Of a DNA stretch of 64,000 bases, positions 1 to 64,000 are shown piece after piece. The DNA comes from Sinohyriopsis cumingii (Eukaryota; Mollusca; Bivalvia; Unionida; Unionidae), in assembly GCA_028554795.2 (NCBI GenBank), contig JAPYKE020000279.1, forward strand, positions 186,001 through 250,000, given 5' to 3'. The position numbers and the translations under genes are program-made. The stretch's first letter is position 1. The number at the start of each line of letters is the position of its first letter. The notes below the pieces were generated by a model. That model did no database searches. It was given only the letters and a program-made list of their open reading frames with translations, and was not told where the DNA came from.

Positions 1-602
1 CTGTAGGAAGGAGTCCATTCTCCTAGAGTTGGCTTGATTGCATGAAGTTTGTTATTCACGGCATCATTCCATGATGCCTGCCACTTCTGACGAAAGAACT
101 TTCTGATACAAGGTTTAAAATCAGTATATGGTATTTTAAAATCAGATGGTTCTTGAGTAAGGGCCATTTTAGCAGCGCGATCTGCTTTTTCGTTACCTTT
201 AATGCCAATGTGGCTAGGTAACCAACAGTATATTATATTGTGGGAGACACTCAGCTCGGCATCTTTGAAGAGTATGTTTTTTAATAATGGGTTCTCCAGT
301 TTTCTATTGTGTAGTGACTGGAGTCCTGATAGCGAGTCGGAGAATATGATACTGTTTAAAATATGTTTCTTTTCTATATGTTGCAGAGGAAGGTCTATTG
401 CTCTGATTTCGGCTGTAAAAATTGATGCTCCATTTGGTAAACGAACTTGCGTTGTATGATTTCCACAAACAAAGGCTGCAGCAACCTTTTCCTCATCCTT
501 TGATCCTTCAGTGTAAATTCTGGTGTAGTTTTTAAATTCGGTGAGGAGTTCATCGTAAGAGTTGTGGAAGATAGAAGGGTTTGTTTCGGATTTTTTTTCC
601 AT
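1..602 (-). CDS. LINE ORF2 RNase H segment, partial (copy L1)
   Basis: The first 200 codons of the RNase H segment; the rest lies left of the window. It shows the E65 and D89 acidic positions and the late H131/D141 region of type I RNase H, but the first catalytic position (residue 32, normally Asp in a T-D-G-S motif) is Glu. This copy has Pro at residue 72 where the others have Ala. The frame is shifted relative to the RT segment by an extra A in an A8 run (591-598 on the + strand reads T8), so its ATG is probably internal to the original ORF2. Confidence 0.8.
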   Translation of the reverse strand, partial: MEKKSETNPSIFHNSYDELLTEFKNYTRIYTEGSKDEEKVAAAFVCGNHTTQVRLPNGASIFTAEIRAIDLPLQHIEKKHILNSIIFSDSLSGLQSLHNRKLENPLLKNILFKDAELSVSHNIIYCWLPSHIGIKGNEKADRAAKMALTQEPSDFKIPYTDFKPCIRKFFRQKWQASWNDAVNNKLHAIKPTLGEWTPSY

Positions 603-2076
603 CGTGTAGCGTAAAACGTACTTTTGGTTGTTTAATTAGCCAGGGTGGTGTTTCGGAGATGGATGTTTTTTGAATTTTAGAAAGATCTATATTTGTAGTG
701 TCAAGGCTGGATGATATTCTAATGCCAAAGGAAGGTATGGCGTTTGGTTTATTTTCGTATAAAGTTTTGTATTTGGGTTGAAAAACAGCCGAAAAAGCAG
801 GATTCAGAGGGTTTGATTTTAATTTGAGAGCATACTGTGCGGAAAGCATTTCTCTACGATGCGATAACGGTGGTTCATTCGCCTCAGCTAGAAGGCTTTC
901 ACACGGGGATGTTTTAAATGCTCCCAGAGCCAGTCTTATTCCCTGATGATGAATTGGATCAAGCATTTTAAGATACGATTTTCTGGCTGAACCATACACA
1001 ACGCAACCATAGTCCAGTTTGGAGCGAATAAACGTTCTGTATAAATTTAGGATGACTTTTCTATCAGCACCCCAGTCAGTGTGCGCTACTACTTTAAGTA
1101 GGTTAAGTGCTTTTAAGCATTTAGCTTTTAAGTTCTTTAGGTGTGGAATAAAGGTCAGTTTTCTGTCAAAGATTATACCTAATAATTTGGTTTCCTCAAC
1201 AACTGGAATAGGTGTTCCATCCAGCGTGAGGTTCGGTTCATCGTGATGTTTTCGTAACTGACAGAAATGCATGCATACCGTTTTTAATTTCGAGAATTTG
1301 AAACCGTTTGCATTGGCCCATTTTTGAATTTTGTTTATATTTTGCTGCAGTTGTCTTTCAATTGTATGCATGTGCTTTGACCGATAACATATTAGAAAAT
1401 CATCAACGTATAAAGAGCAATCCACACCAGGAGTCAAACACTTGGTGATGCTATTAATTTTGATGATAAAGAGCGTCACAGATAAAATACTGCCCTGGGG
1501 CACACCCATCTCTTGCTCGTGCAGATCGGAGAGGGTAGAGCCCACTCGTACTTTGAATTCTCTGTCTGAGAGGAAGTTGGATATGAAAGAGGGCAGACGG
1601 CCTTTTCGACCTAGATCGTTCAGGTCATTTAGTATCCCGTACTTCCATGTCGTGTCATAGGCCTTTTCTAAATCAAAGAAAACCGCTACTAAATGTTCTT
1701 TCTTAATAAATGCATCGCGAATAAATGTTTCCAGTCTAACCAGATGATCATTGGTGCTCCGGCCATATCGAAAGCCACTTTGGAAAGGAGATATTAAATT
1801 GTTAGTTTCCAAATACCAGACAAGCCGAGAACTGATCATTCGTTCCATTGTTTTGCACACACAGCTTGTGAGTGCAATTGGTCGATAGCTGTTGGGGTCT
1901 TCGCTATCTTTACCGGGTTTGGAGACTGGTATTACAGTTGCTTCTTTCCAGATTTTTGGTACATTACCAGTAATCCATAAATCATTGAAGAGTTTCAAAA
2001 GAGATGTTAAAGATGATTCTGGAAGGTGTTTCAAAAACTGGTAATGTATTTCGTCAGGCCCAAGCGGAAGTATCAT
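550..2076 (-). CDS. LINE ORF2 reverse transcriptase segment (copy L1)
   Basis: A 508-residue frame covering the reverse transcriptase that copies LINE RNA into the target site. Visible motifs: the Y-R-P-I-A-L-T block near residues 64-70; motif A around F-D-L-E-K-A-Y-D with catalytic D135; G-V-P-Q-G at 191-195; and the catalytic Y-V-D-D at 223-226 (Val where Ala is commoner in this family). The ATG at 2076 is not a native start: the upstream ORF2 sequence continues in another frame and is joined by a one-base insertion at 2062-2063. The frame ends at 550 because of the A8-run shift before RNase H. U1-only residues: I204 and K252. Confidence 0.88.
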   Translation of the reverse strand: MILPLGPDEIHYQFLKHLPESSLTSLLKLFNDLWITGNVPKIWKEATVIPVSKPGKDSEDPNSYRPIALTSCVCKTMERMISSRLVWYLETNNLISPFQSGFRYGRSTNDHLVRLETFIRDAFIKKEHLVAVFFDLEKAYDTTWKYGILNDLNDLGRKGRLPSFISNFLSDREFKVRVGSTLSDLHEQEMGVPQGSILSVTLFIIKINSITKCLTPGVDCSLYVDDFLICYRSKHMHTIERQLQQNINKIQKWANANGFKFSKLKTVCMHFCQLRKHHDEPNLTLDGTPIPVVEETKLLGIIFDRKLTFIPHLKNLKAKCLKALNLLKVVAHTDWGADRKVILNLYRTFIRSKLDYGCVVYGSARKSYLKMLDPIHHQGIRLALGAFKTSPCESLLAEANEPPLSHRREMLSAQYALKLKSNPLNPAFSAVFQPKYKTLYENKPNAIPSFGIRISSSLDTTNIDLSKIQKTSISETPPWLIKQPKVRFTLHDGKKIRNKPFYLPQLLR

Positions 2077-2531
2077 GGGCCTTATCTAAAGCCTCCCTAA
2101 GCTCCGATAGTGAGAACAATTGATTATAACTTTCCGAGTTGTTGGATGTGAATTTTAAACGTGACTTTTCTTTTTGAGTTTTAAGTTTTCGGAAGGCTTC
2201 TGAATAATTAGATGATGAGGAATTTTTCGAGAAACTGTCAGCAAGAATATTTGCAATGTCACGTTTTGAACTAAAGTTGTTATTGTTCAGTGTCAGATGT
2301 CGGAGAGGGTTTTGTTTTCTCTTTCCGTTTATTTTGCGTATAGTGTCCCAAACTTTCTTAACAGAGGAACGAGAGTTTAAAGAAGAAACATATTTCTTCC
2401 ATGATGCTCTTTTACTTTCTTTGATTGTGCGGCGAGCTTTGGCCCGGACAATGCGATATATATTTAAGTTTTCGGGCGTCGGGTGATTATTGAATTTTTT
2501 TAATGCTTCTCGGCGTTGCAGTATGGCTTCC

Positions 2532-3410
2532 TTACAATTCCTTAGTGAGCCAAGGTTTTAGGGTTCTTATACAGTTTGTTGAGGACTTGGGGATAGATTC
2601 TTCTGCAATGGCGGTTAAAATAGATGTAAAATGCTGAATGGGATCGTTAACATTGAAAACTGTATCCTCATTCAGCCTAGTTTTACAGAGTGTTTCGAAC
2701 TTGGCCCAGTCGGCCTTCTTTAAATTCCATTGTGGAATTACTTCATCAATTGTAGAGTTATGATTTACAAGGGAGATTGGGAAGTGATCGCTGCTGTGAA
2801 GGTCATCAGCGACCTTCCATTCATAGTCCAAAAGCAGCGAAGGAGAACAAATTGTGAAATCGATGCATGTGTATGTACCCGTGCCTGGGGGTAAATATGT
2901 AGGTGTTTTGGTATTATATAGACACAGATCGTGTCTAGAAATAAGGTCTTCAACTTTGTGAGCTCTGTCACTTATATGATTCGATCCCCATAAAATGTTA
3001 TGGGCATTAAAATCCCCGAGTAAAACAAATGGCGCGGGAAGCTGTTGAACAAGGTCGTCTAATTCGTTTGGTACTAGGTTAGTGTTTGGTGGTAAGTAAA
3101 TAGAGCAAAATGTAATCACTCGATGTAGAGTGACGCTTACAGCAATGGCTTGTAAATTGGTATTTAAATGAATGAAGCTATGAGGAGCTCTGTTGTTCAC
3201 AATAACAGAAACTCCTCCTGATGCCCTATCAACATTTGGAGAGCAGGTGTTAAACAGGGAGTAGTTTTTAAATGTGATATTGTCCGTATCTTTCAAGAAT
3301 GTTTCTTGAAGGCATAGTACCGCAGGATCATGTTCGTTTAAAAGCAGGAGAATATCATTGTAATTTGCTTTAAGTCCTCGACAATTCCATTGTATGATAG
3401 TGTTTTTCAT
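2532..3410 (-). CDS. LINE ORF2 AP-type endonuclease segment (copy L1)
   Basis: A 292-residue frame with the exonuclease-endonuclease-phosphatase fold that nicks the target DNA. Catalytic and ligand positions visible: N9 in the Q-W-N-C-R-G-L start, E36 in C-L-Q-E-T, D133/N135 in G-D-F-N-A-H, and the terminal S-D-H at 207-209. Position 185, in the I-D-x-T-I-C-S strand, is Phe in U1-U3 and the canonical Leu in U4/U5. The ATG at 3410 is a credible ORF2 start: it lies about 60 bp after the ORF1 stop. The stop at 2532 is caused by a one-base insertion at 2536-2537. About 155 more ORF2 codons follow in the shifted frame, without a stop, down to 2062. Confidence 0.88.
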   Translation of the reverse strand: MKNTIIQWNCRGLKANYNDILLLLNEHDPAVLCLQETFLKDTDNITFKNYSLFNTCSPNVDRASGGVSVIVNNRAPHSFIHLNTNLQAIAVSVTLHRVITFCSIYLPPNTNLVPNELDDLVQQLPAPFVLLGDFNAHNILWGSNHISDRAHKVEDLISRHDLCLYNTKTPTYLPPGTGTYTCIDFTICSPSLLLDYEWKVADDLHSSDHFPISLVNHNSTIDEVIPQWNLKKADWAKFETLCKTRLNEDTVFNVNDPIQHFTSILTAIAEESIPKSSTNCIRTLKPWLTKEL

Positions 3411-3472
3411 TATAAATTTAAATGAAAGATTGTGGAGCTAGGTTAGACCTTTCGCAGAGGGAATTTGTTTTG

Positions 3473-3766
3473 TTATTTATCTGGAGGAAGTACGGGGGTG
3501 AATTTTTTGTTTGTAGGTCTGGCGTTCCCTTGAGCGCATGGAGCAGATTCTTCTGCATCCATGCTCTCAATGTCTCCAAACCTGTTATAAAGTTTGATGG
3601 GGTCATCTGACCCCTTTTGTTGCCTGTTTCCATGAGATTTATTTTTGTTTTTTGGTGATTTAGGTTGCTGGGTATTGCTGAATGTAGTTTGTGTAGATGC
3701 CGTGTTTCTCTGTGATTGGTAATGAGGGGTGTTTGAGCTTGGTGTTGAATCGGGTGCTTCTGTTTG
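3473..3766 (-). pseudogene. LINE ORF1 C-terminal remnant (copy L1)
   Basis: The last ~97 codons of ORF1 (Ser/Thr/Gln/Asn-rich tail after the zinc knuckles), recognised by identity with the intact ORF1 of U4. The knuckles and N-terminal domain are missing. The break at 3766 joins directly to unrelated flank DNA. Confidence 0.85.
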
Positions 3767-3864
3767 ATGGTTCCCTTGCTGTCACTTCATTCAAAGGGTG
3801 TTGGAACTCTATTCATCACCATGGACACATTCAGAGTGTACCTTTTCATCAGAGAGAATGCAGT

Positions 3865-3894
3865 TATAATAATAATAATAATAATAATAATAAT
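3865..3894. repeat. TAA microsatellite, 10 repeats (U1)
   Basis: Perfect trinucleotide run. Counterparts: 10 repeats in U2, 10 in U3, 23 in U4 and 13 in U5. It immediately precedes the conserved-looking tatagcgcc / aagcgcttta block. Confidence 0.95.
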
Positions 3895-4440
3895 TAGAAC
3901 TTTGTATAGCGCCTCATCTTTAGAAGCTCTAAGCGCTTTACAATATTAGACAACACCTATAAGATAAAAAAAACATATAATGAAATGATTACAAAAACAA
4001 ACACCATGAAATTAGAAAACATAAAAAACATGCTGAAAATATATAAGGTAGGAAACATTATTAGGCTTTAAGTTTGTTCTTGCAGTCGAAAGAAGTGAGT
4101 TTCGAGAGCACTCTTGAATGGGATCATTAATGAAATGATTACAAAAACAAACACCATGAAATTAGAAAACATAAAAAACATGCTGAAAATATTTAAGGTA
4201 GGAAACATTATTAGGCTTTAAGTTTGTTCTTGCAGTCGAAATAAGTGAGTTTTGAGAGCACTCTTGAATGGGATCACTGTGTCTTTGTGTCTAAGTTCAG
4301 TGGGCAATTCATTCGACGTTGCTGGGCCCTGGTATGCAAAAGAACGCTGTCCATATGTCTTTGTTTTCAAAGTGGGAATAATGAGTATAAATTATTTAGT
4401 TATAAATATTTTGTAAGGATCAAATAGACCGCACACAACA
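3895..4440. repeat. Interspersed-repeat-like block with a 150-bp tandem duplication (U1)
   Basis: Starts with a block containing tatagcgcc and, ~22 bases later, aagcgcttta. AGCGC and GCGCT are complementary and could pair as a short stem. Then 3978-4127 and 4128-4277 are a direct 150-bp duplication; the copies differ at three positions. The rest to about 4440 looks like the body of the same repeat. A microsatellite joined to such a motif resembles dispersed repeats I remember from many invertebrate genomes; I cannot name the family. Equivalents: 18649-19194, 33411-33956 and 60020-60565. U4 (49994-50390) has a single copy of the 150-bp segment. Confidence 0.6.
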
Positions 4441-6111
4441 ACTCCTTCGTAAATGGGTTAGAATTCTCGACCACCGGCATCTAGGTAGAATAAGAGATTT
4501 GATTATTTTGACAGTGGGCAAAAATATATAAAGTATGCTAAATAATGTACTCAGAGAATTTCCTTCTATTGAGTGTTGTTCACGTTAACGCCGTTATCGA
4601 TCGATACACTGATTTTGATTTTGGTATTATTTATATTTTTCTGTGCATATAGCCATATAAAAATTCGTTACATGTGAAAAGTGATGATATTTAGTGCGTG
4701 TAGACAATTTTGAATGATACGAAAGTCCAAGAGATGGAAGCTTACTAAAACAAGGTTAAGTAGATTGAGTTTATGACATGAATCGTTTCTCATTTAGTTG
4801 CATCTCAGTTAGTGATAACGAATATCTTAAGCTGACTATAGTCGTATGACATGAACTGACTGGACATTCCTTTCCACTGCCATTTGTTTTTCTTCAGGTT
4901 GAAACAATAGATGCATTAATTGAGAAAAGGAAGGAATGATTGTAATTTATAAAAGGAAATATAAATGCATTGATTCCGGTTTAATAATAAATTAGTGATG
5001 TATATGTTCTTTTAAATGGTAATACAGACAAATGCAGTATAGTTGTTATACAAATAGTAATTAAATATATTTAATAGATCAAAAGATCAAAATGAGCATT
5101 TCAATATTTCTTATTCCCATACCAAAAAGCGAAATTTTTTAGAATGTTTTTGGAAGTAAGCAAAGGGCTTCGAATCTCATTGATCAGACAGTATTTGTAG
5201 CTAAAAGCAGGTAGAAATTAGACAAATTTTGAACTTTGAAATGTGATGGTATTGGGTCAACAATTTGGCCTCATTACTATCTCAGTGATTCCTATGTCTT
5301 TTTTTTCAATCCACAATGCCTAACAAGAAACTTAGATAACTAGGCGCTGAAATCGGTTTACTCTCTCTCTCTCTTTCTCCTCCGTGTGCTGAACGCACCC
5401 ATACCTTCTAAGACTAAAAATTCACTCTAGCTTTGAGTTTTTGTACAGTTCCTTTGTATATGGCGCTTCGAACTGTTCTTAGATATCAAACAAATACTTA
5501 CAAAATTACCCGTGTGAAATATAAAATAACCGCATTGTTGACGGATAAATTTAAGAGGACAAGCGGAATACCATTGATGCACCTTCTGCTGTTAATCCAT
5601 TTTTGTTCATCGTATTTCGTCATTACTGCCATTCATAAGTTGCATACATTTGGTCCATTATATCAATCAATAGTCAGATCTTTCATACTAAGCAAAAAAG
5701 TAGGATATGTTTCCAGAGTAACGTCGAAAATTAGCACTGTCTGAATCAACATGCAAAACAAGCCGCAATCAAGCTGAAATATGAATCAAAGGCTTTTTAT
5801 GGTACAGTTTAATAAGGACATTTCTTAATTTTCGCCAACCCAAAAGTGTGCCGCACTAAGTTTTCAACGTTATAGTACATCATAAATATAGTGAATATTT
5901 ACGAGAATTTGAAGTAGTTAGTTTTAAGATAGACATACTGATACATATTGGAGTAGTAGCACTCTGGCGACAACAATGACGCTCGGGCGACAATGGAAAC
6001 TAACATTACGCCTCTAGTTTGAAAACTAACACTCCCTCGTCAATTTAACATGAACCATATGTTTAACATTAGTATGACATTCTGACCTCAAGGGAAAGGA
6101 TAATGTTGAAC
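4441..6111. other. Non-coding segment between repeat block and repeat A (U1)
   Basis: AT-rich. A short CT-rich tract near 5361-5385 is the only structure I can point to. A 94-codon ATG frame (5460-5744, +) has one hydrophobic stretch, but I see no homology or conservation evidence and do not call it a gene. Equivalent segments: 19195-20865, 33957-35627, 50391-52063 and 60566-62236. Confidence 0.6.
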
Positions 6112-7030
6112 ATGTCCATGTGTTAAATGAGCATCAGTATTTACAAAGGGGAAATGCAATGTTCAAACCACGTCTACTAACCAATGCAAACTTTTGACTG
6201 AGCAACATACATTCATCTTCTGAGTCACACCAACATTTACTAACCATCACGCCGCTTAAACTCACCAGCACCTAATCTCCACTTGAACAACACATACTCA
6301 CGAACATGCCGTTTTGGTTGCCCAAACCCAAACTTATTAATAAACGACAAAGCAATGGGATGCTAACACATACACACAACCATCCATGAAAGGGTAGAAA
6401 TGATCATGCACACACATCAACAGAAGCAGCCATGAATAGTGTTGTACTGCTCATATACTGTATATAGAAACATATTTAATTACTATCGTACATCTAGTGA
6501 AAGGAAAGAAATATGTAGGAGTGCTTTCATATATATACAAAGTTACTAATATATCTCTAAAGGGTAAGATTATCCATTCACTATGCACACAAACTTGCTA
6601 CCACACTAAAGGCAACGGGCACTCATACACAAAACACATATAGTTATATCCTGATTTGAGTGGGACGTCGTTTAGGCCACCAAGTTAATAGTAATTCCTA
6701 CGCATTATTTGTCCTACATAAAACCCACCTTGGATAAGAAAAGAACATATTTAGAAGGAACTGACATGGCCGTTCTGAAGTATTGGTTGCAGCAAAATCA
6801 ATGAAAGATATCCAGTATTCGACAGCAGTGTCTTGGTATTTAATCGGAACTATACAGTATTGTGCTGACATGCTATTACACCGAATGCATACAGACATAC
6901 ATAATGATTGTAGAGAATTATGTCACCAACAGAAAACGTAGTACTTAAACAAATGACCCCAAACTTAGATAATCTGATTATAAGAGGTAATTCTGGAGTT
7001 GTTTAATACATTTCGAGTATCCATAGTCGA
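6112..7030. repeat. Direct repeat A, left of Gypsy fragment (U1)
   Basis: A 919-bp copy of host flank, repeated as B exactly 4635 bp to the right. It begins at the base where the Gypsy LTR ends in B, so it represents the unoccupied target. It ends where the Gypsy RT fragment begins. A-type diagnostic bases: aatgc near 6184, ttgga near 6732, attataag near 6977. It is not an LTR: it lacks TG...CA ends, and the same sequence is present in U4 without any Gypsy DNA. Confidence 0.93.
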
Positions 7031-9765
7031 CTCCATGGACTGCTTGAGGGCCGAATGAGGACTTGCTCTAGCATTTCATCCAATATTGCTTTTACCTCTT
7101 TCCGTTGCGCGAAAGGTATTCTATATGGCCGTTGTTTAATTGGTGTCTCCGAAGTTGTCTTTATACTGTGAGTTAAGATGTTTGTTCGACCAGGCCTAGT
7201 TGTTAGAACATCCTGAAATTCATTGCAAAGATTTCTAATATCCTCTCGTTGGTCTTTTGTCAAGTTTACCCCCAGCTTAACGCCAGCATCACCTTCACCT
7301 GCTCTTGGAGGAAAGTCAATATCCACACCATCGTTCTCGTCTGCCTTCGTCGCCAGCAGCACAGCACGCTTGTATCCACGCAGCAAGTTTATATGATAGG
7401 TAACTGTACCGCGCCTACCGGGTACAGATACCTGGTAGTTAACATCGTTTACCTTCCGGACCACACGATAAGGTCCCTGCCATTGTGCCTTCATCTTGGA
7501 CGAACTTGATGGCAAGAGAATGAGGACTTCATCTCCAGGACTGAATTCTCGTGTTTTCGTGTGACGATCATACAGTGCCTTGATTTTCTTTTGGCGATCC
7601 AACAGATTATCTTTGACAAGAGCCCCGATGTCAGCCAACTTCTCACGCATTTTCACAACATGCTCCACAGTTGACTTCCTTACATCTTCCTCTCCTGTAA
7701 ACAAGCCTTGTAAAATCTGCATTGGCCCCCTAACTGGCCAACCATACATCTCTAAGGGTGCAAATCCAGTTTCCTCATGTGGGACTTCGCGGTATGCAAA
7801 CAACAAAAATGGCAACATCTCATCCCATTCATTCTTGTTGTCTATACAGAACTTCCGCAACATTGACTTCAAGGTCCCGTTAAAACGTTCTACTTTTCCA
7901 TTTGCTTGCGGGTGATACGGCGTTGTTGTAACTCCACGAATACCCACTAGTTCATACAGCTGTTTCAATAAGGTGCTAGTGAAGTTGGTCCCTTTGTCTG
8001 TTAATATGACCCTTGGAAAACCAACACGGCTAAACAGCTCAATCAGTGCTCTAGCTACATTAGTTGCCTCCATATCCTTCAAAGGAAAAGCTTCGGGATA
8101 CCTCGTTGCATCATCAACAACCGTCAGAATGTATTTGCGTCCAGACTTCGTTCTAGATAACGGTCCAACAATATCCATTGCAATTTTTGAGAACGGTTCT
8201 GTTATCACCGGTGGGCATACCAGTGGTGCTTTCTCACCTGCAGTCTGTTTTGCTGTCATCTGGCATTCATGACACGATGTACAATATCTTTTTACATCGG
8301 AAAACATTCCAGGCCAAAAGAACGATTGGAGAATCCTCTCTTTTGTTTTCTCCAAACCCAGGTGACCTGCAAGGGGTCGATCATGTGCCAGCTCCATTAC
8401 CATTTTCCGTAATCCTGCTGGTACAACTATTTGCTCCCCTCCACGTGAACCATCACCAGATTGCCATTTCCGTCGCAAAATATCATTCTCCCAGAAGAAT
8501 GCCATTGGCTCCTCCTCAGCCTCTTCACGAGTAGCAAAGGACTTCTCTCTAATACTTTGCAGTGAAATATCCGCAATCTGTAGTTTCGACAACATGTCCG
8601 CATTCATTGCTGAAAGTTCGTCAACTTCAATGTCATCACGCTGATCAGGATCTTCTGTCTCGATGCTGTTGTTGACAAAGTCATTCTTACCCTCATGCTC
8701 ACATTGATCAGTATTTTCCACAGCCCTCTCATCGTCGAGTCCTTTTAACATCGACCTCGTAACAACAAATGACCCTTTCTTGCTAAGTATATCCATCCCC
8801 AATAGGGCTTCAGCGGCTAGATTTGAAACAAGACCCACTTGCGCTGGTCCCTTATAATATGTAGTGTCGATATTTACCACAGCCAACTGTGCGGTAAATG
8901 GCTGACCCACTGCTGTGTATAACTTAACCTTGTGCCCCTCCAGCTTGCAACTCTCATCAACAAGATCTTCTCTTATCAAGGCCATATCTGATCCAGTGTC
9001 CTTCACAAACATGATCTCGCGCCCATTCACACATCCTGTTTCTGAAATAAACTTTTCACCAATTGTTGGCTTAACAAAACAAGTTGCCGGATTGCCACGA
9101 TATTTCATGTCATCTGTTGGACAATACCTTGCAATATGTCCCCATTGTTTGCATCGATAACATTGCCTATTCTTCTGCTTGGACTGGTCTTTTATCGATG
9201 TTAGTTTTGCTTGCTGCTGTAAGTTCTGACAATTCATCTTGTTACTATTTACATTTATATTTTGATGAAACTTAATCCGCTGCCCTTGCTGTTGTAAATT
9301 TGTGGGAATATAATCTTCCGCGGCCTCTACGACTGGACTAGAGCCCTTGTTCCTCCTAATCCACTGTGCTTGATCTTGTGGCAAGGCTTTCAAGAAAAAT
9401 TCCTCACGAAGACAAATAACTGGGTCATGATCTTCCAAGAAACGCTTTATGTGCTGATCAATCCTGGCCATCAGACCACGATACGTCTCAGTGCTTTCCT
9501 TCTTCATGCTCAACAGTGCCGTGAAATGTTCATGCGGTCTCTTTCCAAAACGATCAATCAGTCCTTTCCTGAGTTCCAGGTAATCACCACAAGCTTGAGT
9601 TGCAACATATCTAGCCTCCCCTGTCAACAGAGTTCTTAGCTGTAATACTTTCAACTCGTCAGACCAATTGGCATGTTTTGCAATTGATTCAAACTCTGCC
9701 AGGAAAGTCACAATATCCTCTCCTCGTTCATGGTCATATGCATGTAGCTTTACTTTTAATGGCAT
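7003..9765 (-). CDS. Gypsy Gag-protease-integrase-(RT start) polyprotein, 3'-truncated (copy G1)
   Basis: 920 codons in one frame. Gag-like region ~1-195; CCHC knuckle C202-C205-H210-C215; aspartic protease with D-T-G-S at 256-259 and L-L-G-M-D-I-L at 321-327; integrase zinc finger H461/H468/C495/C498; integrase core D531, D590, E626 (D-35-E spacing); GPY/F-like module around 762-766; and the N-terminal edge of RT from about 835 to 912 (I-R-P-S-S-S-P-W-S). The last eight residues come from repeat A, whose TAA supplies the stop. Residue 902 is Val in U1 and U2 but the family-typical Gly in U3 and U5. The ATG at 9765 follows an in-frame TAA three codons upstream, so this start may be secondary. 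Confidence 0.9.
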   Translation of the reverse strand: MPLKVKLHAYDHERGEDIVTFLAEFESIAKHANWSDELKVLQLRTLLTGEARYVATQACGDYLELRKGLIDRFGKRPHEHFTALLSMKKESTETYRGLMARIDQHIKRFLEDHDPVICLREEFFLKALPQDQAQWIRRNKGSSPVVEAAEDYIPTNLQQQGQRIKFHQNINVNSNKMNCQNLQQQAKLTSIKDQSKQKNRQCYRCKQWGHIARYCPTDDMKYRGNPATCFVKPTIGEKFISETGCVNGREIMFVKDTGSDMALIREDLVDESCKLEGHKVKLYTAVGQPFTAQLAVVNIDTTYYKGPAQVGLVSNLAAEALLGMDILSKKGSFVVTRSMLKGLDDERAVENTDQCEHEGKNDFVNNSIETEDPDQRDDIEVDELSAMNADMLSKLQIADISLQSIREKSFATREEAEEEPMAFFWENDILRRKWQSGDGSRGGEQIVVPAGLRKMVMELAHDRPLAGHLGLEKTKERILQSFFWPGMFSDVKRYCTSCHECQMTAKQTAGEKAPLVCPPVITEPFSKIAMDIVGPLSRTKSGRKYILTVVDDATRYPEAFPLKDMEATNVARALIELFSRVGFPRVILTDKGTNFTSTLLKQLYELVGIRGVTTTPYHPQANGKVERFNGTLKSMLRKFCIDNKNEWDEMLPFLLFAYREVPHEETGFAPLEMYGWPVRGPMQILQGLFTGEEDVRKSTVEHVVKMREKLADIGALVKDNLLDRQKKIKALYDRHTKTREFSPGDEVLILLPSSSSKMKAQWQGPYRVVRKVNDVNYQVSVPGRRGTVTYHINLLRGYKRAVLLATKADENDGVDIDFPPRAGEGDAGVKLGVNLTKDQREDIRNLCNEFQDVLTTRPGRTNILTHSIKTTSETPIKQRPYRIPFAQRKEVKAILDEMLEQVLIRPSSSPWSRLWILEMY

Positions 9766-9774
9766 TGAAGATGT

Positions 9775-10098: not shown

Positions 10099-10370
10099 CT
10101 ATATGTACGTACTGTAAGTTCTATCACTGTATTCACAGCCACTGGACTAGCTTTAATTATCTACGAGTTTCTGGGCTTACACGTGTACACTCGTTACAGT
10201 GATACACACTTTGCACTTAGCAATTAACAACTGTACGTTATACACACAGTACAACCAGTCACTGCTAATATCACAGATTCACTGAATTCACAGCTTTCAG
10301 AATTGTCAAACACAATTCCAACGTATTGAAAAAAATTCCAAATAATTCACACAGGATTTTGGAATCCGTA

Positions 10371-10382
10371 CCGCTGCCACCA
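10371..10382 (-). promoter_or_regulatory. Gypsy primer binding site, tRNA-Leu type (copy G1)
   Basis: The + strand reads ccgctgccacca, the 3' end of typical animal tRNA-Leu including CCA. On the minus (element) strand it is the 12-base primer binding site, three bases downstream of the LTR end. Same in G2 (25125-25136) and G3 (39885-39896). Confidence 0.85.
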
Positions 10383-10385
10383 AAA

Positions 10386-53455: not shown

Positions 53456-53457
<2 letters not shown>

Positions 53458-55212: not shown

Positions 55213-55245
55213 GTTGGATTAGTATCCAAATATAGAAATTTTAGG
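55213..55245. other. 33-bp segment present only in U4
   Basis: In the other units catctgg joins directly to tctaa. The segment is bounded by a GG that could have served as microhomology for a deletion. Insertion here or loss elsewhere cannot be decided from the site alone. Confidence 0.85.
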
Positions 55246-55842
55246 TCTAAATATTATTTGCATTTTGGTAGATTTAGAACAATATTTAATATAGTACATA
55301 TACATATTTTAACACAGCCGTATAGCAGTGTTGGAGACAAACCAAGATAAGGATACATATTCTCTCTCCAATATTGATGGGATTTGTACCTGCGCACAAC
55401 GTTATGTGAAGATGCATCATTCAATCCTTGGCGACTTTAAAATGCCGACTACAAATCTTCAGTAATTCATTGAAGACGGTTTATAACATCATATACTAGA
55501 AAAGGGTGCGACGTCCTAATTACAATAATGTACATTAAGGCTAACCTCAAGTATAAAAAGGATTGATTGATTGATTGATTGTTTGTTTTTTAACGGCGCA
55601 TCAGCACTGTTAGGCTATTTAGCGCCAAACAAAGTGTTATTTGTATAATCTTTTAAAACTTATTAAAGGTCCTATATCGACCAGCGATATAAAAGAACAA
55701 ATGGTTGAAATTAAAAACGGTAAGATGGTAACGGTGCAAAATAAAGCTTCCCGATCAACGGGAAATGTAGAAAAGATGAATAAGTATTAAAATGGGACGG
55801 TATATATATTGCATAAAACTGCACAAGGTGATAGCATAAAAG

Positions 55843-56718
55843 TCAGAGTTTAGAGTAAATATTTACGGCTTTCAGGAACTCTATAATACGAGTGATGTTT
55901 ACAGTATCAAAAAGTTCTTTCATGCCATGCACTTTGTAATAACGATCGCGCGTAGGTTGTAGGTCAAAGCACTCTATCATAAAGTGCTTGACAGTGAATG
56001 GTTCATTGCAAGAAACGCACTCTGGTGGGTCTTCACCTTTTAGTATGTGGGTGTGGGTGATAGAAGTATGACCAATTCGGATTCTTGCTATGACTATCTC
56101 CTCCCTACGAATGGTTCTGTAGGAAGGAGTCCATTCTCCTAGAGTTGGCTTGATTGCATGAAGTTTGTTATTCACGGCATCATTCCATGATGCCTGCCAC
56201 TTCTGACGAAAGAACTTTCTGATACAAGGTTTAAAATCAGTATATGGTATTTTAAAATCAGATGGTTCTTGAGTAAGGGCCATTTTAGCAGCGCGATCTG
56301 CTTTTTCGTTACCTTTAATGCCAATGTGGCTAGGTAACCAACAGTATATTATATTGTGGGAGACACTCAGCTCGGCATCTTTGAAGAGTATGTTTTTTAA
56401 TAATGGGTTCTCCAGTTTTCTATTGTGTAGTGACTGGAGTCCTGATAGCGAATCGGAGAATATGATACTGTTTAAAATATGTTTCTTTTCTATATGTTGC
56501 AGAGCAAGGTCTATTGCTCTGATTTCGGCTGTAAAAATTGATGCTCCATTTGGTAAACGAACTTGCGTTGTATGATTTCCACAAACAAAGGCTGCAGCAA
56601 CCTTTTCCTCATCCTTTGATCCTTCAGTGTAAATTCTGGTGTAGTTTTTAAATTCGGTGAGGAGTTCATCGTAAGAGTTGTGGAAGATAGAAGGGTTTGT
56701 TTCGGATTTTTTTTCCAT
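55843..56718 (-). CDS. LINE ORF2 RNase H and C-terminal segment (copy L5)
   Basis: 291 codons, with Ser at residue 219 (Tyr elsewhere). Glu at residue 32 again. Confidence 0.85.
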   Translation of the reverse strand: MEKKSETNPSIFHNSYDELLTEFKNYTRIYTEGSKDEEKVAAAFVCGNHTTQVRLPNGASIFTAEIRAIDLALQHIEKKHILNSIIFSDSLSGLQSLHNRKLENPLLKNILFKDAELSVSHNIIYCWLPSHIGIKGNEKADRAAKMALTQEPSDFKIPYTDFKPCIRKFFRQKWQASWNDAVNNKLHAIKPTLGEWTPSYRTIRREEIVIARIRIGHTSITHTHILKGEDPPECVSCNEPFTVKHFMIECFDLQPTRDRYYKVHGMKELFDTVNITRIIEFLKAVNIYSKL

Positions 56719-58192
56719 CGTGTAGCGTAAAACGTACTTTTGGTTGTTTAATTAGCCAGGGTGGTGTTTCGGAGATGGATGTTTTTTGAATTTTAGAAAG
56801 ATCTATATTTGTAGTGTCAAGGCTGGATGATATTCTAATGCCAAAGGAAGGTATGGCGTTTGGTTTATTTTCGTATAAAGTTTTGTATTTGGGTTGAAAA
56901 ACAGCCGAAAAAGCAGGATTCAGAGGGTTTGATTTTAATTTGAGAGCATACTGTGCGGAAAGCATTTCTCTACGATGCGATAACGGTGGTTCATTCGCCT
57001 CAGCTAGAAGGCTTTCACACGGGGATGTTTTAAATGCTCCCAGAGCCAGTCTTATTCCTTGATGATGAATTGGATCAAGCATTTTAAGATACGATTTTCT
57101 GGCTGAACCATACACAACGCAACCATAGTCCAGTTTGGAGCGAATAAACGTTCTGTATAAATTTAGGATGACTTTTCTATCAGCACCCCAGTCAGTGTGC
57201 GCTACTACTTTAAGTAGGTTAAGTGCTTTTAAGCATTTAGCTTTTAAGTTCTTTAGGTGTGGAATAAAGGTCAGTTTTCTGTCAAAGATTATACCTAATA
57301 ATTTGGTTTCCTCAACAACTGGAATAGGTGTTCCATCCAGCGTGAGGTTCGGTTCATCGTGATGTTTTCGTAACTGACAGAAATGCATGCATACAGTTTT
57401 TAAATTCGAGAATTTGAAACCGTTTGCATTGGCCCAATTTTGAATTTTGTTTATATTTTGCTGCAGTTGTCTTTCAATTGTATGCATGTGCTTTGACCGA
57501 TAACATATTAGAAAATCATCAACGTATAAAGAGCAATCCACACCAGGAGTCAAACACTTGGTGATGCTATTAATTTTGATGTTAAAGAGCGTCACAGATA
57601 AAATACTGCCCTGGGGCACACCCATCTCTTGCTCGTGCAGATCGGAGAGGGTAGAGCCCACTCGTACTTTGAATTCTCTGTCTGAGAGGAAGTTGGATAT
57701 GAAAGAGGGCAGACGGCCTTTTCGACCTAGATCGTTCAGGTCATTTAGTATCCCGTACTTCCATGTCGTGTCATAGGCCTTTTCTAAATCAAAGAAAACC
57801 GCTACTAAATGTTCTTTCTTAATAAATGCATCGCGAATAAATGTTTCCAGTCTAACCAGATGATCATTGGTGCTCCGGCCATATCGAAAGCCACTTTGGA
57901 AAGGAGATATTAAATTGTTAGTTTCCAAATACCAGACAAGCCGAGAACTGATCATTCGTTCCATTGTTTTGCACACACAGCTTGTGAGTGCAATTGGTCG
58001 ATAGCTGTTGGGGTCTTCGCTATCTTTACCGGGTTTGGGGACTGGTATTACAGTTGCTTCTTTCCAGATTTTTGGTACATTACCAGTAATCCATAAATCA
58101 TTGAAGAGTTTCAAAAGAGATGTTAAAGATGATTCTGGAAGGTGTTTCAAAAACTGGTAATGTATTTCGTCAGGCCCAAGCGGAAGTATCAT
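56666..58192 (-). CDS. LINE ORF2 reverse transcriptase segment (copy L5)
   Basis: 508 codons. Pro at residue 52 gives the canonical P-x-P-K-P-G motif, probably the ancestral state; Asn at residue 263 is private. Confidence 0.88.
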   Translation of the reverse strand: MILPLGPDEIHYQFLKHLPESSLTSLLKLFNDLWITGNVPKIWKEATVIPVPKPGKDSEDPNSYRPIALTSCVCKTMERMISSRLVWYLETNNLISPFQSGFRYGRSTNDHLVRLETFIRDAFIKKEHLVAVFFDLEKAYDTTWKYGILNDLNDLGRKGRLPSFISNFLSDREFKVRVGSTLSDLHEQEMGVPQGSILSVTLFNIKINSITKCLTPGVDCSLYVDDFLICYRSKHMHTIERQLQQNINKIQNWANANGFKFSNLKTVCMHFCQLRKHHDEPNLTLDGTPIPVVEETKLLGIIFDRKLTFIPHLKNLKAKCLKALNLLKVVAHTDWGADRKVILNLYRTFIRSKLDYGCVVYGSARKSYLKMLDPIHHQGIRLALGAFKTSPCESLLAEANEPPLSHRREMLSAQYALKLKSNPLNPAFSAVFQPKYKTLYENKPNAIPSFGIRISSSLDTTNIDLSKIQKTSISETPPWLIKQPKVRFTLHDGKKIRNKPFYLPQLLR

Positions 58193-58647
58193 GGGCCTTA
58201 TCTAAAGCCTCCCTAAGCTCCGATAGTGAGAACAATTGATTATAACTTTCCGAGTTGTTGGATGTGAATTTTAAACGTGACTTTTCTTTTTGAGTTTTAA
58301 GTTTTCGGAAGGCTTCTGAATAATTAGATGATGTGGAATTTTTCGAGAAACTGTCAGCAAGAATATTTGCAATGTCACGTTTTGAACTAAAGTTGTTATT
58401 GTTCAGTGTCAGATGTCGGAGAGGGTTTTGTTTTCTCTTTCCGTTTATTTTGCGTATAGTGTCCCAAACTTTCTTAACAGAGGAACGAGAGTTTAAAGAA
58501 GAAACATATTTCTTCCATGATGCTCTTTTACTTTCTTTGATTGTGCGGCGAGCTTTGGCCCGGACAATGCGATATATATTTAAGTTTTCGGGCGTCGGGT
58601 GATTATTGAATTTTTTTAATGCTTCTCGGCGTTGCAGTATGGCTTCC

Positions 58648-59526
58648 TTACAATTCCTTAGTGAGCCAAGGTTTTAGGGTTCTTATACAGTTTGTTGAGG
58701 ACTTGGGGATAGATTCTTCTGCAATGGCGGTTAAAATAGATGTAAAATGCTGAATGGGATCGTTAACATTGAAAACTGTATCCTCATTCAGCCTAGTTTT
58801 ACAGAGTGTTTCGAACTTGGCCCAGTCGGCCTTCTTTAAATTCCATTGTGGAATTACTTCATCAATTGTAGAGTTATGATTTACAAGGGAGATTGGGAAG
58901 TGATCGCTGCTGTGAAGGTCATCAGCGACCTTCCATTCATAGTCCAAAAGCAGCGAAGGAGAACAAATTGTCAAATCGATGCATGTGTATGTACCCGTGC
59001 CTGGGTGTAAATATGTAGGTGTTTTGGTATTATATAGACACAGATCGTGTCTAGAAATAAGGTCTTCAACTTTGTGAGCTCTGTCACTTATATGATTCGA
59101 TCCCCATAAAATGTTATGGGCATTAAAATCCCCGAGTAAAACAAATGGCGTGGGAAGCTGTTGAACAAGGTCGTCTAATTCGTTTGGTACTAGGTTAGTG
59201 TTTGGTGGTAAGTAAATAGAGCAAAATGTAATCACTCGATGTAGAGTGACGCTTACAGCAATGGCTTGTAAATTGGTATTTAAATGAATGAAGCTATGAG
59301 GAGCTCTGTTGTTCACAATAACAGAAACTCCTCCTGATGCCCTATCAACATTTGGAGAGCAGGTGTTAAACAGGGAGTAGTTTTTAAATGTGATATTGTC
59401 CGTATCTTTCAAGAATGTTTCTTGAAGGCATAGTACCGCAGGATCATGTTCGTTTAAAAGCAGGAGAATATCATTGTAATTTGCTTTAAGTTCTCGACAA
59501 TTCCATTGTATGATAGTGTTTTTCAT
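58648..59526 (-). CDS. LINE ORF2 AP-type endonuclease segment (copy L5)
   Basis: 292 codons. Leu185 shared with L4. Private changes G12E next to the catalytic Asn motif, and A126T. Confidence 0.87.
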   Translation of the reverse strand: MKNTIIQWNCRELKANYNDILLLLNEHDPAVLCLQETFLKDTDNITFKNYSLFNTCSPNVDRASGGVSVIVNNRAPHSFIHLNTNLQAIAVSVTLHRVITFCSIYLPPNTNLVPNELDDLVQQLPTPFVLLGDFNAHNILWGSNHISDRAHKVEDLISRHDLCLYNTKTPTYLHPGTGTYTCIDLTICSPSLLLDYEWKVADDLHSSDHFPISLVNHNSTIDEVIPQWNLKKADWAKFETLCKTRLNEDTVFNVNDPIQHFTSILTAIAEESIPKSSTNCIRTLKPWLTKEL

Positions 59527-59588
59527 TATAAATTTAAATGAAAGATTGTGGAGCTAGGTTAGACCTTTCGCAGAGGGAATTTGTTTTG

Positions 59589-59882
59589 TTATTTATCTGG
59601 AGGAAGTACGGGGGTGAATTTTTTGTTTGTAGGTCTGGCGTTCCCTTGAGCGCATGGAGCAGATTCTTCTGCATCCATGCTCTCAATGTCTCCAAACCTG
59701 TTATAAAGTTTGATGGGGTCATCTGACCCCTTTTGTTGCCTGTTTCCATGAGATTTATTTTTGTTTTTTGGTGATTTAGGTTGCTGGGTATTGCTGAATG
59801 TAGTTTGTGTAGATGCCGTGTTTCTCTGTGATTGGTAATGAGGGGTGTTTGAGCTTGGTGTTGAATCGGGTGCTTCTGTTTG
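59589..59882 (-). pseudogene. LINE ORF1 C-terminal remnant (copy L5)
   Basis: Same remnant and break point as L1-L3. Confidence 0.85.
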
Positions 59883-59980
59883 ATGGTTCCCTTGCTGTCA
59901 CTTCATTCAAAGGGTGTTGGAACTCTATTCATCACCATGGACACATTCAGAGTGTACCTTTTCATCAGAGAGAATGCAGT

Positions 59981-60019
<39 letters not shown>
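59981..60019. repeat. TAA microsatellite, 13 repeats (U5)
   Basis: Intermediate between U1-U3 and U4. Confidence 0.95.
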
Positions 60020-60102
60020 TAGAACTTTGTATAGCGCCTCATCTTTAGAAGCTCTAAGCGCTTTACAATATTAGACAACACCTATAAGATAAAAAAAACA
60101 TA

Positions 60103-60402
60103 TAATGAAATGATTACAAAAACAAACACCATGAAATTAGAAAACATAAAAAACATGCTGAAAATATATAAGGTAGGAAACATTATTAGGCTTTAAGTTT
60201 GTTCTTGCAGTCGAAAGAAGTGAGTTTCGAGAGCACTCTTGAATGGGATCATTAATGAAATGATTACAAAAACAAACACCATGAAATTAGAAAACATAAA
60301 AAACATGCTGAAAATATTTAAGGTAGGAAACATTATTAGGCTTTAAGTTTGTTCTTGCAGTCGAAATAAGTGAGTTTTGAGAGCACTCTTGAATGGGATC
60401 AC
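60103..60402. repeat. 150-bp tandem duplication (U5)
   Basis: Two copies as in U1-U3. Confidence 0.9.
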
Positions 60403-62236
60403 TGTGTCTTTGTGTCTAAGTTCAGTGGGCAATTCATTCGACGTTGCTGGGCCCTGGTATGCAAAAGAACGCTGTCCATATGTCTTTGTTTTCAAAGTGG
60501 GAATAATGAGTATAAATTATTTAGTTATAAATATTTTGTAAGGATCAAATAGACCGCACACAACAACTCCTTCGTAAATGGGTTAGAATTCTCGACCACC
60601 GGCATCTAGGTAGAATAAGAGATTTGATTATTGTGACAGTGGGCAAAAATATATAAAGTATGCTAAATAATGTACTCAGAGAATTTCCTTCTATTGAGTG
60701 TTGTTCACGTTAACGCCGTTATCGATCGATACACTGATTTTGATTTTGGTATTATTTATATTTTTCTGTGCATATAGCCATATAAAAATTCGTTACATGT
60801 GAAAAGTGATGATATTTAGTGCGTGTAGACAATTTTGAATGATATGAAAGTCCAAGAGATGGAAGCTTACTAAAACAAGGTTAAGTAGATTGAGTTTATG
60901 ACATGAATCGTTTCTCATTTAGTTGCATCTCAGTTAGTGATAACGAATATCTTAAGCTGACTATAGTCGTATGACATGAACTGACTGGACATTCCTTTCC
61001 ACTGCCATTTGTTTTTCTTCAGGTTGAAACAATAGATACATTAATTGAGAAAAGGAAGGAATGATTGTAATTTATAAAAGGAAATATAAATGCATTGATT
61101 CCGGTTTAATAATAAATTAGTGATGTATATGTTCTTTTAAATGGTAATACAGACAAATGCAGTATAGTTGTTATACAAATAGTAATTAAATATATTTAAT
61201 AGATCAAAAGATCAAAATGAGCATTTCAATATTTCTTATTCCCATACCAAAAAGCGAAATTTTTTAGAATGTTTTTGGAAGTAAGCAAAGGGCTTCGAAT
61301 CTCATTGATCAGACAGTATTTGTAGCTAAAAGCAGGTAGAAATTAGACAAATTTTGAACTTTGAAATGTGATGGTATTGGGTCAACAATTTGGCCTCATT
61401 ACTATCTCAGTGATTCCTATGTCTTTTTTTTCAATCCACAATGCCTAACAAGAAACTTAGATAACTAGGCGCTGAAATCGGTTTACTCTCTCTCTCTCTT
61501 TCTCCTCCGTGTGCTGAACGCACCCATACCTTCTAAGACTAAAAATTCACTCTAGCTTTGAGTTTTTGTACAGTTCCTTTGTATATGGCGCTTCGAACTG
61601 TTCTTAGATATCAAACAAATACTTACAAAATTACCCGTGTGAAATATAAAATAACCGCATTGTTGACGGATAAATTTAAGAGGACAAGCGGAATACCATT
61701 GATGCACCTTCTGCTGTTAATCCATTTTTGTTCATCGTATTTCGTCATTACTGCCATTCATAAGTTGCATACATTTGGTCCATTATATCAATCAATAGTC
61801 AGATCTTTCATACTAAGCAAAAAAGTAGGATATGTTTCCAGAGTAACGTCGAAAATTAGCACTGTCTGAATCAACATGCAAAACAAGCCGCAATCAAGCT
61901 GAAATATGAATCAAAGGCTTTTTATGGTACAGTTTAATAAGGACATTTCTTAATTTTCGCCAACCCAAAAGTGTGCCGCACTAAGTTTTCAACGTTATAG
62001 TACATCATAAATATAGTGAATATTTACGAGAATTTGAAGTAGTTAGTTTTAAGATAGACATACTGATACATATTGGAGTAGTAGCACTCTGGCGACAACA
62101 ATGACGCTCGGGCGACAATGGGAACTAACATTACGCCTCTAGTTTGAAAACTAACACTCCCTCGTCAATTTAACATGAACCATATGTTTAACATTAGTAT
62201 GACATTCTGACCTCAAGGGAAAGGATAATGTTGAAC

Positions 62237-63153
62237 ATGTCCATGTGTTAAATGAGCATCAGTATTTACAAAGGGGAAATGCAATGTTCAAACCACGTCT
62301 ACTAACCAATGCAAACTTTTGACTGAGCAACATACATTCATCTTCTGAGTCACACCAACATTTACTAACCATCACGCCGCTTAAACTCACCAGCACCTAA
62401 TCTCCACTTGAACAACACATACTCACGAACATGCCGTTTTGGTTGCCCAAACCCAAACTTATTAATAAACGACAAAGCAATGGGATGCTAACACATACAC
62501 ACAACCATCCATGAAAGGGTAGAAATGATCATGCACACACATCAACAGAAGCAGCCATGAATAGCAGTACTGCTCATATACTGTATATAGAAACATATTT
62601 AATTACTATCGTACATCTAGTGAAAGGAAAGAAATATGTAGGAGTGCTTTCATATATATACAAAGTTACTAATATATCTCTAAAGGGTAAGATTATCCAT
62701 TCACTATGCACACAAACTTGCTACCACACTAAAGGCAACGGGCACTCATACACAAAACACATATAGTTATATCCTGATTTGAGTGGGACGTCGTTTAGGC
62801 CACCAAGTTAATAGTAATTCCTACGCATTATTTGTACTACATAAAACCCACCTTGGATAAGAAAAGAACATATTTAGAAGGAACTGACATGGCCGTTCTG
62901 AAGTATTGGTTGCATCAAAATCAATGAAAGATATCCAGTATTCGACAGCAGTGTCTTGGTATTTAATCGGAACTATACAGTATTGTGCTGACATGCTATT
63001 ACACCGAATGCATACAGACATACATAATGATTGTAGAGAATTATGTCACCAACAGAAAACGTAGTACTTAAACAAATGACCCCAAACTTAGATAATCTGA
63101 TTATAAGAGGTAATTCTGGAGTTGTTTAATACATTTCGAGTATCCATAGTCGA
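62237..63153. repeat. Direct repeat A (U5), 917-bp variant
   Basis: Shares the short variant with A of U3 and with U4, and the T of A2/A3 at 62916. Confidence 0.92.
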
Positions 63154-64000
63154 CTCCATGGACTGCTTGAGGGCCGAATGAGGCCTTGCTCTAGCATTTC
63201 ATCCAATATTGCTTTTACCTCTTTCCGTTGCGCGAAAGGTATTCTATATGGCCGTTGTTTAATTGGTGTCTCCGAAGTTGTCTTTATACTGTGAGTTAAG
63301 ATGTTTGTTCGACCAGGCCTAGTTGTTAGAACATCCTGAAATTCATTGCAAAGATTTCTAATATCCTCTCGTTGGTCTTTTGTCAAGTTTACCCCCAGCT
63401 TAACGCCAGCATCACCTTCACCTGCTCTTGGAGGAAAGTCAATATCCACACCATCGTTCTCGTCTGCCTTCGTCGCCAGCAGCACAGCACGCTTGTATCC
63501 ACGCAGCAAGTTTATATGATAGGTAACTGTACCGCGCCTACCGGGTACAGATACCTGGTAGTTAACATCGTTTACCTTCCGGACCACACGATAAGGTCCC
63601 TGCCATTGTGCCTTCATCTTGGACGAACTTGATGGCAAGAGAATGAGGACTTCATCTCCAGGACTGAATTCTCGTGTTTTCGTGTGACGATCATACAGTG
63701 CCTTGATTTTCTTTTGGCGATCCAACAGATTATCTTTGACAAGAGCCCCGATGTCAGCCAACTTCTCACGCATTTTCACAACATTCTCCACAGTTGACTT
63801 CCTTACATCTTCCTCTCCTGTAAACAAGCCTTGTAAAATCTGCATTGGCCCCCTAACTGGCCAACCATACATCTCTAAGGGTGCAAATCCAGTTTCCTCA
63901 TGTGGGACTTCGCGGTATGCAAACAACAAAAATGGCAACATCTCATCCCATTCATTCTTGTTGTCTATACAGAACTTCCGCAACATTGACTTCAAGGTCC
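63126..64000 (-). CDS. Gypsy polyprotein, integrase C-terminus to RT start, partial (copy G5)
   Basis: Corresponds to residues from about 630 to 920 of the G1 frame, entering from beyond the window. Asn at residue 702 (His elsewhere) and canonical Gly at 902. The apparent start inside the window is only the edge cut. Confidence 0.87.
   Translation of the reverse strand, partial: TLKSMLRKFCIDNKNEWDEMLPFLLFAYREVPHEETGFAPLEMYGWPVRGPMQILQGLFTGEEDVRKSTVENVVKMREKLADIGALVKDNLLDRQKKIKALYDRHTKTREFSPGDEVLILLPSSSSKMKAQWQGPYRVVRKVNDVNYQVSVPGRRGTVTYHINLLRGYKRAVLLATKADENDGVDIDFPPRAGEGDAGVKLGVNLTKDQREDIRNLCNEFQDVLTTRPGRTNILTHSIKTTSETPIKQRPYRIPFAQRKEVKAILDEMLEQGLIRPSSSPWSRLWILEMY
63154..64000 (-). mobile_element. 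Gmr1-like Gypsy fragment, copy G5 (cut by window end)
   Basis: Same RT break next to repeat A as in the other units. Confidence 0.9.

What the first reader, a model, noticed from the sequence alone, without database searches (positions are those of the whole stretch)
1..64000. Macrosatellite-like array built from nested, dead retrotransposons
Four and a third head-to-tail units of ~14.75 kb, each holding a LINE and a Gypsy fragment at identical internal positions, with only about ten differences between U1 and U2 by eye. Such length and identity mean very recent amplification, ongoing homogenisation by unequal exchange, or an assembly artefact.
Basis: partly seen in the sequence, partly recalled or inferred. 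Interest (0 to 1): 0.8.

Follow-up and report, generated by a model that had tools for sequence, protein, structure and literature searches.

The report
Thousand-copy repeat carrying dead retrotransposons
The window is a small piece of a very large tandem repeat in an animal genome whose basic unit is about 6 kb of otherwise unrecognised DNA; single retrotransposon insertions appear to have been copied along with it by unequal exchange, a clear but largely ordinary example of how such arrays evolve.

Summary
The window is C279:186001-250000 of a 2.9-Gb assembly. U1 and U2 differ by 10 substitutions and a microsatellite length. U4 differs in kind: 11,836 bp, a longer LINE, no Gypsy fragment.

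Two core junctions occur 1,077 and 1,075 times genome-wide; plain units are ~6.04-6.2 kb. At the LINE site, 921 units are empty, 84 carry the full LINE and 70 the window's deleted LINE. Of 228 Gypsy 5' ends, 226 share one truncation joint; two array copies retain RT. Each lesion thus looks like one event multiplied by exchange.

The 919-bp repeats beside the Gypsy are not LTRs. They are core DNA, duplicated when a Gmr1-like element (361-bp LTR, TSD GACAT) was truncated and rejoined to the core. Exchange between them explains nested ~4.64-kb runs of at least 24 and perhaps clean removal, as in U4.

Verdict: a TE-laden macrosatellite, a known kind, unusually legible. Artefact unlikely; reads were not available.

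The parts
1..14754 (.). U1: LINE with 1,780-bp deletion + truncated Gypsy
   Evidence: self-alignment
14755..29516 (.). U2: same type as U1
29517..44280 (.). U3: same type as U1
44281..56116 (.). U4: 11,836 bp, full-length LINE, no Gypsy fragment, one copy of repeat A
56117..64000 (.). U5: partial unit, deleted LINE, runs into the truncated Gypsy at the window end
43726..49463 (-). Full-length LINE, 5,738 bp, spanning the U3/U4 border as numbered
   Evidence: flanked by AAGTATAAAAAGG at 43713-43725 and 49464-49476; empty site in C28 units; endonuclease, RT and RNase H Pfam matches in the equivalent frames of U1/U2
43713..43725 (.). LINE target-site duplication, 3'-end side of the LINE
49464..49476 (.). 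LINE target-site duplication, 5'-end side of the LINE
48047..49826 (-). 1,780 bp absent from U1, U2, U3 and U5: 1,417 bp of LINE 5' part and 363 bp of TSD and core
3758..3770 (.). Deletion joint (U1); also at 18512, 33274 and 59874
   Evidence: 70 places genome-wide
7031..10746 (-). Truncated Gmr1-like Gypsy: 5' LTR 10386-10746, then gag-like, CCHC, protease, integrase, start of RT
   Evidence: Pfam; LTR ends and TSD by comparison with L035
6112..7030 (.). Repeat A, left copy: core DNA, not an LTR
10747..11665 (.). Repeat A, right copy, next to the 5' LTR
52062..52980 (.). The single A of U4 (possible product of A-A exchange); start placed from the core junction
11666..14199 (.). Core of U1 between A and the LINE
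49464..52061 (.). Core of U4 between the LINE and A

Best explanation
The window is part of a large macrosatellite with a ~6.04-6.2 kb core unit and about 1,075 assembled units, roughly 8.4 Mb by my arithmetic. Shown: a Gmr1-like Gypsy element (361-bp LTRs, 5-bp TSD GACAT) and, at another site, a full-length LINE (5,738 bp, 13-bp TSD) lie in the core of some units; 226 of 228 Gypsy 5' ends are matched by one and the same truncation joint in RT, which puts a 919-bp piece of core (A) on both sides of the fragment; and 70 LINE copies share one 1,780-bp deletion. Inferred: each of these happened once, and unequal exchange and conversion between units copied them. Exchange between the two A copies either multiplies the truncated element in tandem (about 4,638-bp period, at least 24 in a row on C6) or removes it cleanly, as probably happened in U4. 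The core has no recognised gene. The likeliest state is satellite DNA kept and homogenised by exchange, with no function of its own.
For: Core junction counts 1,077 (up to 2 mismatches) and 1,075 (up to 3). LINE site: 921 empty + 84 full + 70 deleted = 1,075. Gypsy: 228 5' ends = 226 truncation joints + 2 RT-bearing array copies. Empty LINE site in C28 units and TSD. Complete-length element with both LTRs, PPT-like tract and GACAT on both sides in L035. Tandem runs of 8 and 24. U4's A is close to right As in one half and to left As in the other. Full and deleted LINE units form blocks on C117 (13 switches in 70 LINE-bearing units, shuffles 23.5, 9 of 20,000 as low).
Against: Same block test on C279: no clustering (15 switches in 35 units, shuffles 15.7, 9,029 of 20,000 as low). 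For U4's A, two LINE-free C28 copies are as close as left As in one half, so clean removal is not proven. Pattern counts depend on mismatch tolerance; most units were counted and not read; haplotype copies among contigs are not excluded; no reads were available. Of the two RT-bearing array copies only one (L035) was read.
Confidence: 0.88

Rival explanations
1. Assembly artefact: one or few units were multiplied by the assembler.
For: Units are up to 99.9% identical; several contigs end inside the array (C28, C279) and array stretches on C6 end at N gaps.
Against: Units carry their own variants; size classes of ~5.6, 6.04, 6.2, 10.15, 11.8, 14.75 and 16.57 kb recur on different contigs; divergence between arrays reaches about 2% in the core.
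Confidence: 0.05
2. The 919-bp repeats are LTRs, U4 carries a solo LTR and the 4.64-kb runs are LTR-internal tandems, as described for plant elements.
For: Two ~99.7% identical direct repeats flank a pol-like fragment, and U4 has one of them without the inside.
Against: In L035 the element ends in 361-362 bp TG...CA repeats after a purine tract, with GACAT on both sides, and the 919-bp piece lies outside it. The core runs unbroken into A on both sides in 1,077 and 1,075 places, while there are only 228 Gypsy 5' ends.
Confidence: 0.02
3. U4 never carried the Gypsy fragment and was brought in from a plain lineage, so the A-A exchange did not remove anything.
For: Plain A is the common state, and two LINE-free C28 As match U4 as well as left As do in one half.
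Against: In the other half U4's A has 0 differences from U1's right A and 4-9 from the C28 As compared.
Confidence: 0.35
4. The array is a functional chromosome landmark, such as a centromere, a sex-chromosome macrosatellite or a boundary like DXZ4.
For: C6 is the only contig known to be chromosome-scale on which array junctions were listed; zero-mismatch lists pass from C6 to C28 or higher without C1-C5 or C7-C27.
Against: No gene, RNA family or tRNA found in the core; insertions are tolerated in many units; no chromatin, sex or expression data.
Confidence: 0.1

Closest known systems
Composite tandem repeats of ape sex chromosomes (PMC11168930, passages seen) and the DXZ4 macrosatellite (PMC8662614, outline and abstract seen)
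   Same: Large tandem units, some of them made of TEs plus other sequence; copy number changes by exchange.
   Different: Here the TEs are optional passengers with empty sites still present in most units; no gene-regulatory role was tested.
[quoted passage not shown]
   Same: An element multiplied in tandem with a shared direct repeat between copies.
   Different: There the shared repeat is the LTR; here it is a piece of host satellite duplicated by the truncation.
Rye subtelomeric heterochromatin with co-amplified TEs (PMC4857426, outline and passages seen)
   Same: Tandem repeats and TEs expanding together, unequal and illegitimate exchange invoked.
   Different: There the TEs adjoin short-monomer arrays; here single insertions lie inside a ~6-kb unit and were copied with it.
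Gmr1-like Ty3/gypsy elements (PMC8220671, PMC3587641, PMC6238403, passages seen)
   Same: Integrase upstream of reverse transcriptase.
   Different: 226 of 228 array 5' ends are matched by a truncation joint; the copy read with RT has RT and RNase H in different frames; phylogeny not tested.

Membership tests
Macrosatellite (large-unit tandem array) | Kilobase-size units repeated head to tail at high identity | tested here: met
Macrosatellite (large-unit tandem array) | Confined to one or few chromosomal places | tested here: inconclusive
   C6 is the only chromosome-scale contig in the lists, but lists stop at 100 places and most array contigs are unplaced
Macrosatellite (large-unit tandem array) | Copy number varies between individuals | not testable with these tools
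   one assembly, no reads
Gmr1-like Ty3/gypsy element | Integrase upstream of RT and RNase H | tested here: met
   window frame: CCHC, protease, integrase, start of RT; L035: RVT_1 and RT_RNaseH downstream
Gmr1-like Ty3/gypsy element | LTRs TG...CA with short TSD | tested here: met
   361-362 bp LTRs, GACAT on both sides in L035
Gmr1-like Ty3/gypsy element | Groups with Gmr1 in an RT or IN tree | not tested
   no reference sequences compared
LINE with endonuclease, RT and RNase H | APE-type endonuclease, RT and RNase H in order | tested here: met
   Pfam matches in three separate frames
LINE with endonuclease, RT and RNase H | Variable-length TSD and a 3' tail | tested here: met
   13-bp TSD; 3' end in (CAAT)n repeats on the LINE strand
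LINE with endonuclease, RT and RNase H | Clade (I, Jockey or other) | not tested
   no tree made
Solo LTR / LTR-internal tandem | The shared direct repeat is the LTR | tested here: not met
   A lies outside the element; the LTR is 361 bp
Centromeric satellite | Carries centromeric chromatin | not testable with these tools
   no chromatin data

The most novel reading that the evidence does not exclude
A broken retrotransposon has become a recombination-borne amplicon. Because its truncation put a copy of host satellite on each side, the dead element now multiplies (runs of at least 24) and cleanly erases itself by exchange between those copies, without transposition, inside an array that copies it again as part of the larger unit.
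Probability: 0.5. Interest if true: 0.55.

Novelty: new member of a known kind. Interest (0 to 1): 0.42.

Why it matters
The array carries four single-origin markers (Gypsy insertion, Gypsy truncation, LINE insertion, 1,780-bp deletion) in countable numbers of units. That makes unequal exchange, conversion and loss of insertions measurable in one assembly. It shows a route by which dead retrotransposons can reach hundreds of copies without transposing, and why a reader or annotation program can mistake passengers for the repeat itself.

Tried and rejected
Model in which the 919-bp repeat is the LTR and U4 a solo LTR: my working model from about until. Two searches made under it are uninformative for the final model: the joined-flank query (40 of 1,201 candidates scored, none across the join) and the TSD pattern (0 matches). 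The idea that recombination between two flanking LTRs founded the array fell with it.

Higher-order dimer on C279 (full and deleted LINE units in turn, period about 26.6 kb): not claimed. The one other C279 full-LINE unit read (L028) is 0.32% from U4 in the LINE, while U4 is 0.05% from U2, and type switching on C279 is not below chance.

Gene, RNA or tRNA in the unit: none found beyond the TE frames. One search scanned 10 core frames, chosen from those of 55 aa or more listed. The short frame 50171-50341(-) looked to me like the end of another LINE; Pfam gave only a weak unrelated match (E 0.19), so it is not claimed.

Organism: not identified. Paper searches for precedents: (one search found 0); no claim of absence from print is made.
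Full report
Check of the observation. A self-comparison shows successive units at 1-14754, 14755-29516, 29517-44280, 44281-56116 and 56117-64000. U1 and U2 differ at 10 substitutions in 14,754 aligned bases and in a TC microsatellite (gap runs of 1 and 7 bp); U2 and U3 differ at 12, U1 and U3 at 20. U4 is not of the same kind. It is 11,836 bp, has a single copy of a 919-bp repeat where U1-U3 have two copies with about 3.7 kb between them, and has 1,780 bp at 48047-49826 that U1, U2, U3 and U5 lack.

Genome context. The window is C279:186001-250000 of an unnamed 2.905-Gb assembly in 1,138 contigs. A 36-base pattern across one core junction (6111/6112) occurs 1,077 times with up to 2 mismatches; a second (11665/11666) occurs 1,075 times with up to 3. 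The controls were 0. Listed places lie on C6, a 168-Mb contig, at about 123.73-124.13 and 130.57-130.84 Mb, and on C28, C56, C70, C117, C163, C279, C321, C601, C615, C653, C670 and C831. Six of the nine answered pattern lists stop at 100 places, so most units were counted and not seen one by one; searches list all of their 70 and 84 places, and one search had none. On C28, C56, C70 and C321 neighbouring plain units lie mostly 6.04-6.2 kb apart. From counts and lengths I estimate about 8.4 Mb of array; that is arithmetic, not a tool result. One edge was reached, at C6:130835182, after inverted pieces of the unit. The other end of that array and the upper end of the 124-Mb array are 100-bp N gaps. 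The lower end of the latter was not reached.

The LINE. Plain C28 units give the empty site: the core runs through AAGTATAAAAAGG there, and in U4 this 13-mer flanks a 5,738-bp element at 43726-49463. Frames on the minus strand in U1/U2 match endonuclease, RT and RNase H. The 395-aa frame at 47753-48940, seen in U4 only, shows CCHC motifs by eye (no Pfam match). The 1,780-bp deletion takes 1,417 bp of the LINE and 363 bp of TSD and core. Genome-wide there are 921 empty sites (up to 3 mismatches), 84 full-length LINE 5' junctions (up to 2) and 70 deletion joints (up to 2): 1,075 in all. Of 17 LINE copies read over 3.7 kb, all are split over at least two frames. The 5 of the window, 4 of 5 from C117 and the 1 from C601 show the same frame pattern; 1 from C117 differs in one frame, 1 further C279 copy differs, and the 5 from C6 have other patterns, some with longer open frames.

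The Gypsy fragment, and a correction of my own. I first took the 919-bp repeats for LTRs. L035, from C6, shows otherwise. There the element continues past the point where the window copies stop, with 1,435 bp not found in the window, whose frames match RVT_1 and RT_RNaseH in two different frames. It then ends in a purine-rich tract, a 361-362 bp repeat TGTTATAAG...TGTAACA, and GACAT followed by core; the same repeat, preceded by GACAT, begins the element. So the LTR is 361 bp and lies at 10386-10746 in U1, the TSD is GACAT, and the 919-bp repeat A is core. The order CCHC, protease, integrase, RT, RNase H is that described for Gmr1-like elements (passages of PMC8220671, PMC3587641 and PMC6238403). 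In U1 the RT frame breaks off at 7031 and is joined, with about one shared base at most, to the core at the outer end of A, so that A stands on both sides. The 5' end of the element next to A occurs 228 times and the truncation joint 226 times. Among the 40 candidates scored of 562, two RT-bearing copies lie in the array (C6:123732600, read in L035, and C6:123749922, not read). The other hits lie on 16 other contigs and at two other places on C6, the long ones at 85-98% identity, so the family is dispersed outside the array.

Nested tandem runs. On C6 the element's 5' end recurs about every 4,638 bp: 8 times from 123970680 to 124003148, and 24 times from 124019565 to 124126243, shortly before an assembly gap. 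That spacing is one A plus one truncated element. Unequal exchange between the two A copies predicts such runs, and as the reciprocal product a unit with one A and no element. U4 is such a unit. I compared its A with 30 other full-length copies; 4 partial matches and the copies in L001 and L003, which overlap the window, were left out. In columns 450-923 it has 0 differences from U1's right A (0-3 from the 7 right As, 2-5 from the 7 left As). In columns 1-450 it has 2 differences from 4 of 7 left As (2-5 over all 7) and 4-8 from the right As. Two LINE-free C28 copies also have 2 differences in that half (4 in the other), so clean removal is favoured and not proven.

Spread within the array. 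Over 3.7 kb of LINE, the C279, C117 and C601 copies compared differ by 0-0.46% from each other and by 0.62-0.87% from C6 copies; in the core between LINE and A, C279 and C6 (123.7-124.0 Mb) units differ by 1.4-2.0%. Among LINE-bearing units on C117, full and deleted types form blocks (13 switches in 70, 23.5 expected, 9 of 20,000 shuffles as low); on C279 they do not (15 in 35, 15.7 expected, 9,029 of 20,000 as low) (plain units between them were ignored). The LTR pair of L035 differs at 12 substitutions and one indel, more than the LINE copies differ among themselves. This fits an older Gypsy insertion and later spread, but conversion makes such dating rough.

What it is and how it works. The best reading is a ~6.1-kb macrosatellite propagated by unequal exchange, in which single insertions, one truncation and one deletion were carried to many units. 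From the counts, at least 921 - 228 = 693 of 1,075 units carry neither. No gene, RNA family or tRNA was found in the core, so I assign it no function beyond that of satellite DNA.

Comparison with what is known. Composite repeats and DXZ4-like macrosatellites (PMC11168930 passages; PMC8662614 outline), tandem Cassandra elements (PMC7215508 passages) and co-amplified TEs in rye heterochromatin (PMC4857426 outline and passages) are nearest. A review of satellites arising from TEs names the same exchange mechanisms (PMC9659126 passages). What differs here is the presence of the empty site in most units, the agreement of independent counts, and that the recombining direct repeat is host satellite and not LTR.

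Limits. There were no reads, no second individual and no named relatives, and letters fetched from the genome were capped. Contigs may include haplotype copies, which would lower the count per haploid genome.

Noticed in passing
3978-4276 (same place in U2, U3, U5): A 150-bp tandem duplication in the core that U4 lacks. Its presence or absence may explain the 6.04 v ~6.2 kb plain units.
   Followed up: partly
12069-12124, 26823-26886, 41583-41650, 53384-53455: A TC microsatellite lengthens from U1 to U4 (56, 64, 68, 72 bp).
   Followed up: no
49926-49993: An ATA run is 68 bp in U4 against 29 bp in U1-U3 and 38 bp in U5.
   Followed up: no
C70:548357-559551 and C321:194701-211440 (outside the window): Short runs of plain units spaced about 5.58-5.60 kb instead of 6.04-6.2 kb, another deletion class that spread locally.
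   Followed up: no
L025:1-5182 (C6:130830001-130835182): Array edge with inverted, rearranged pieces of the unit before other sequence begins.
   Followed up: partly
C10:120.81-123.18 Mb (outside the window): Five RT-bearing relatives of the Gypsy within about 2.4 Mb.
   Followed up: no
7003-9774: The truncated Gypsy keeps a long open frame of 914-923 codons in U1, U2 and U3 in spite of its lost RT and RNase H.
   Followed up: partly
50171-50341 (-): A short core frame that looks by eye like the end of another LINE ORF2; only a weak unrelated Pfam match.
   Followed up: partly
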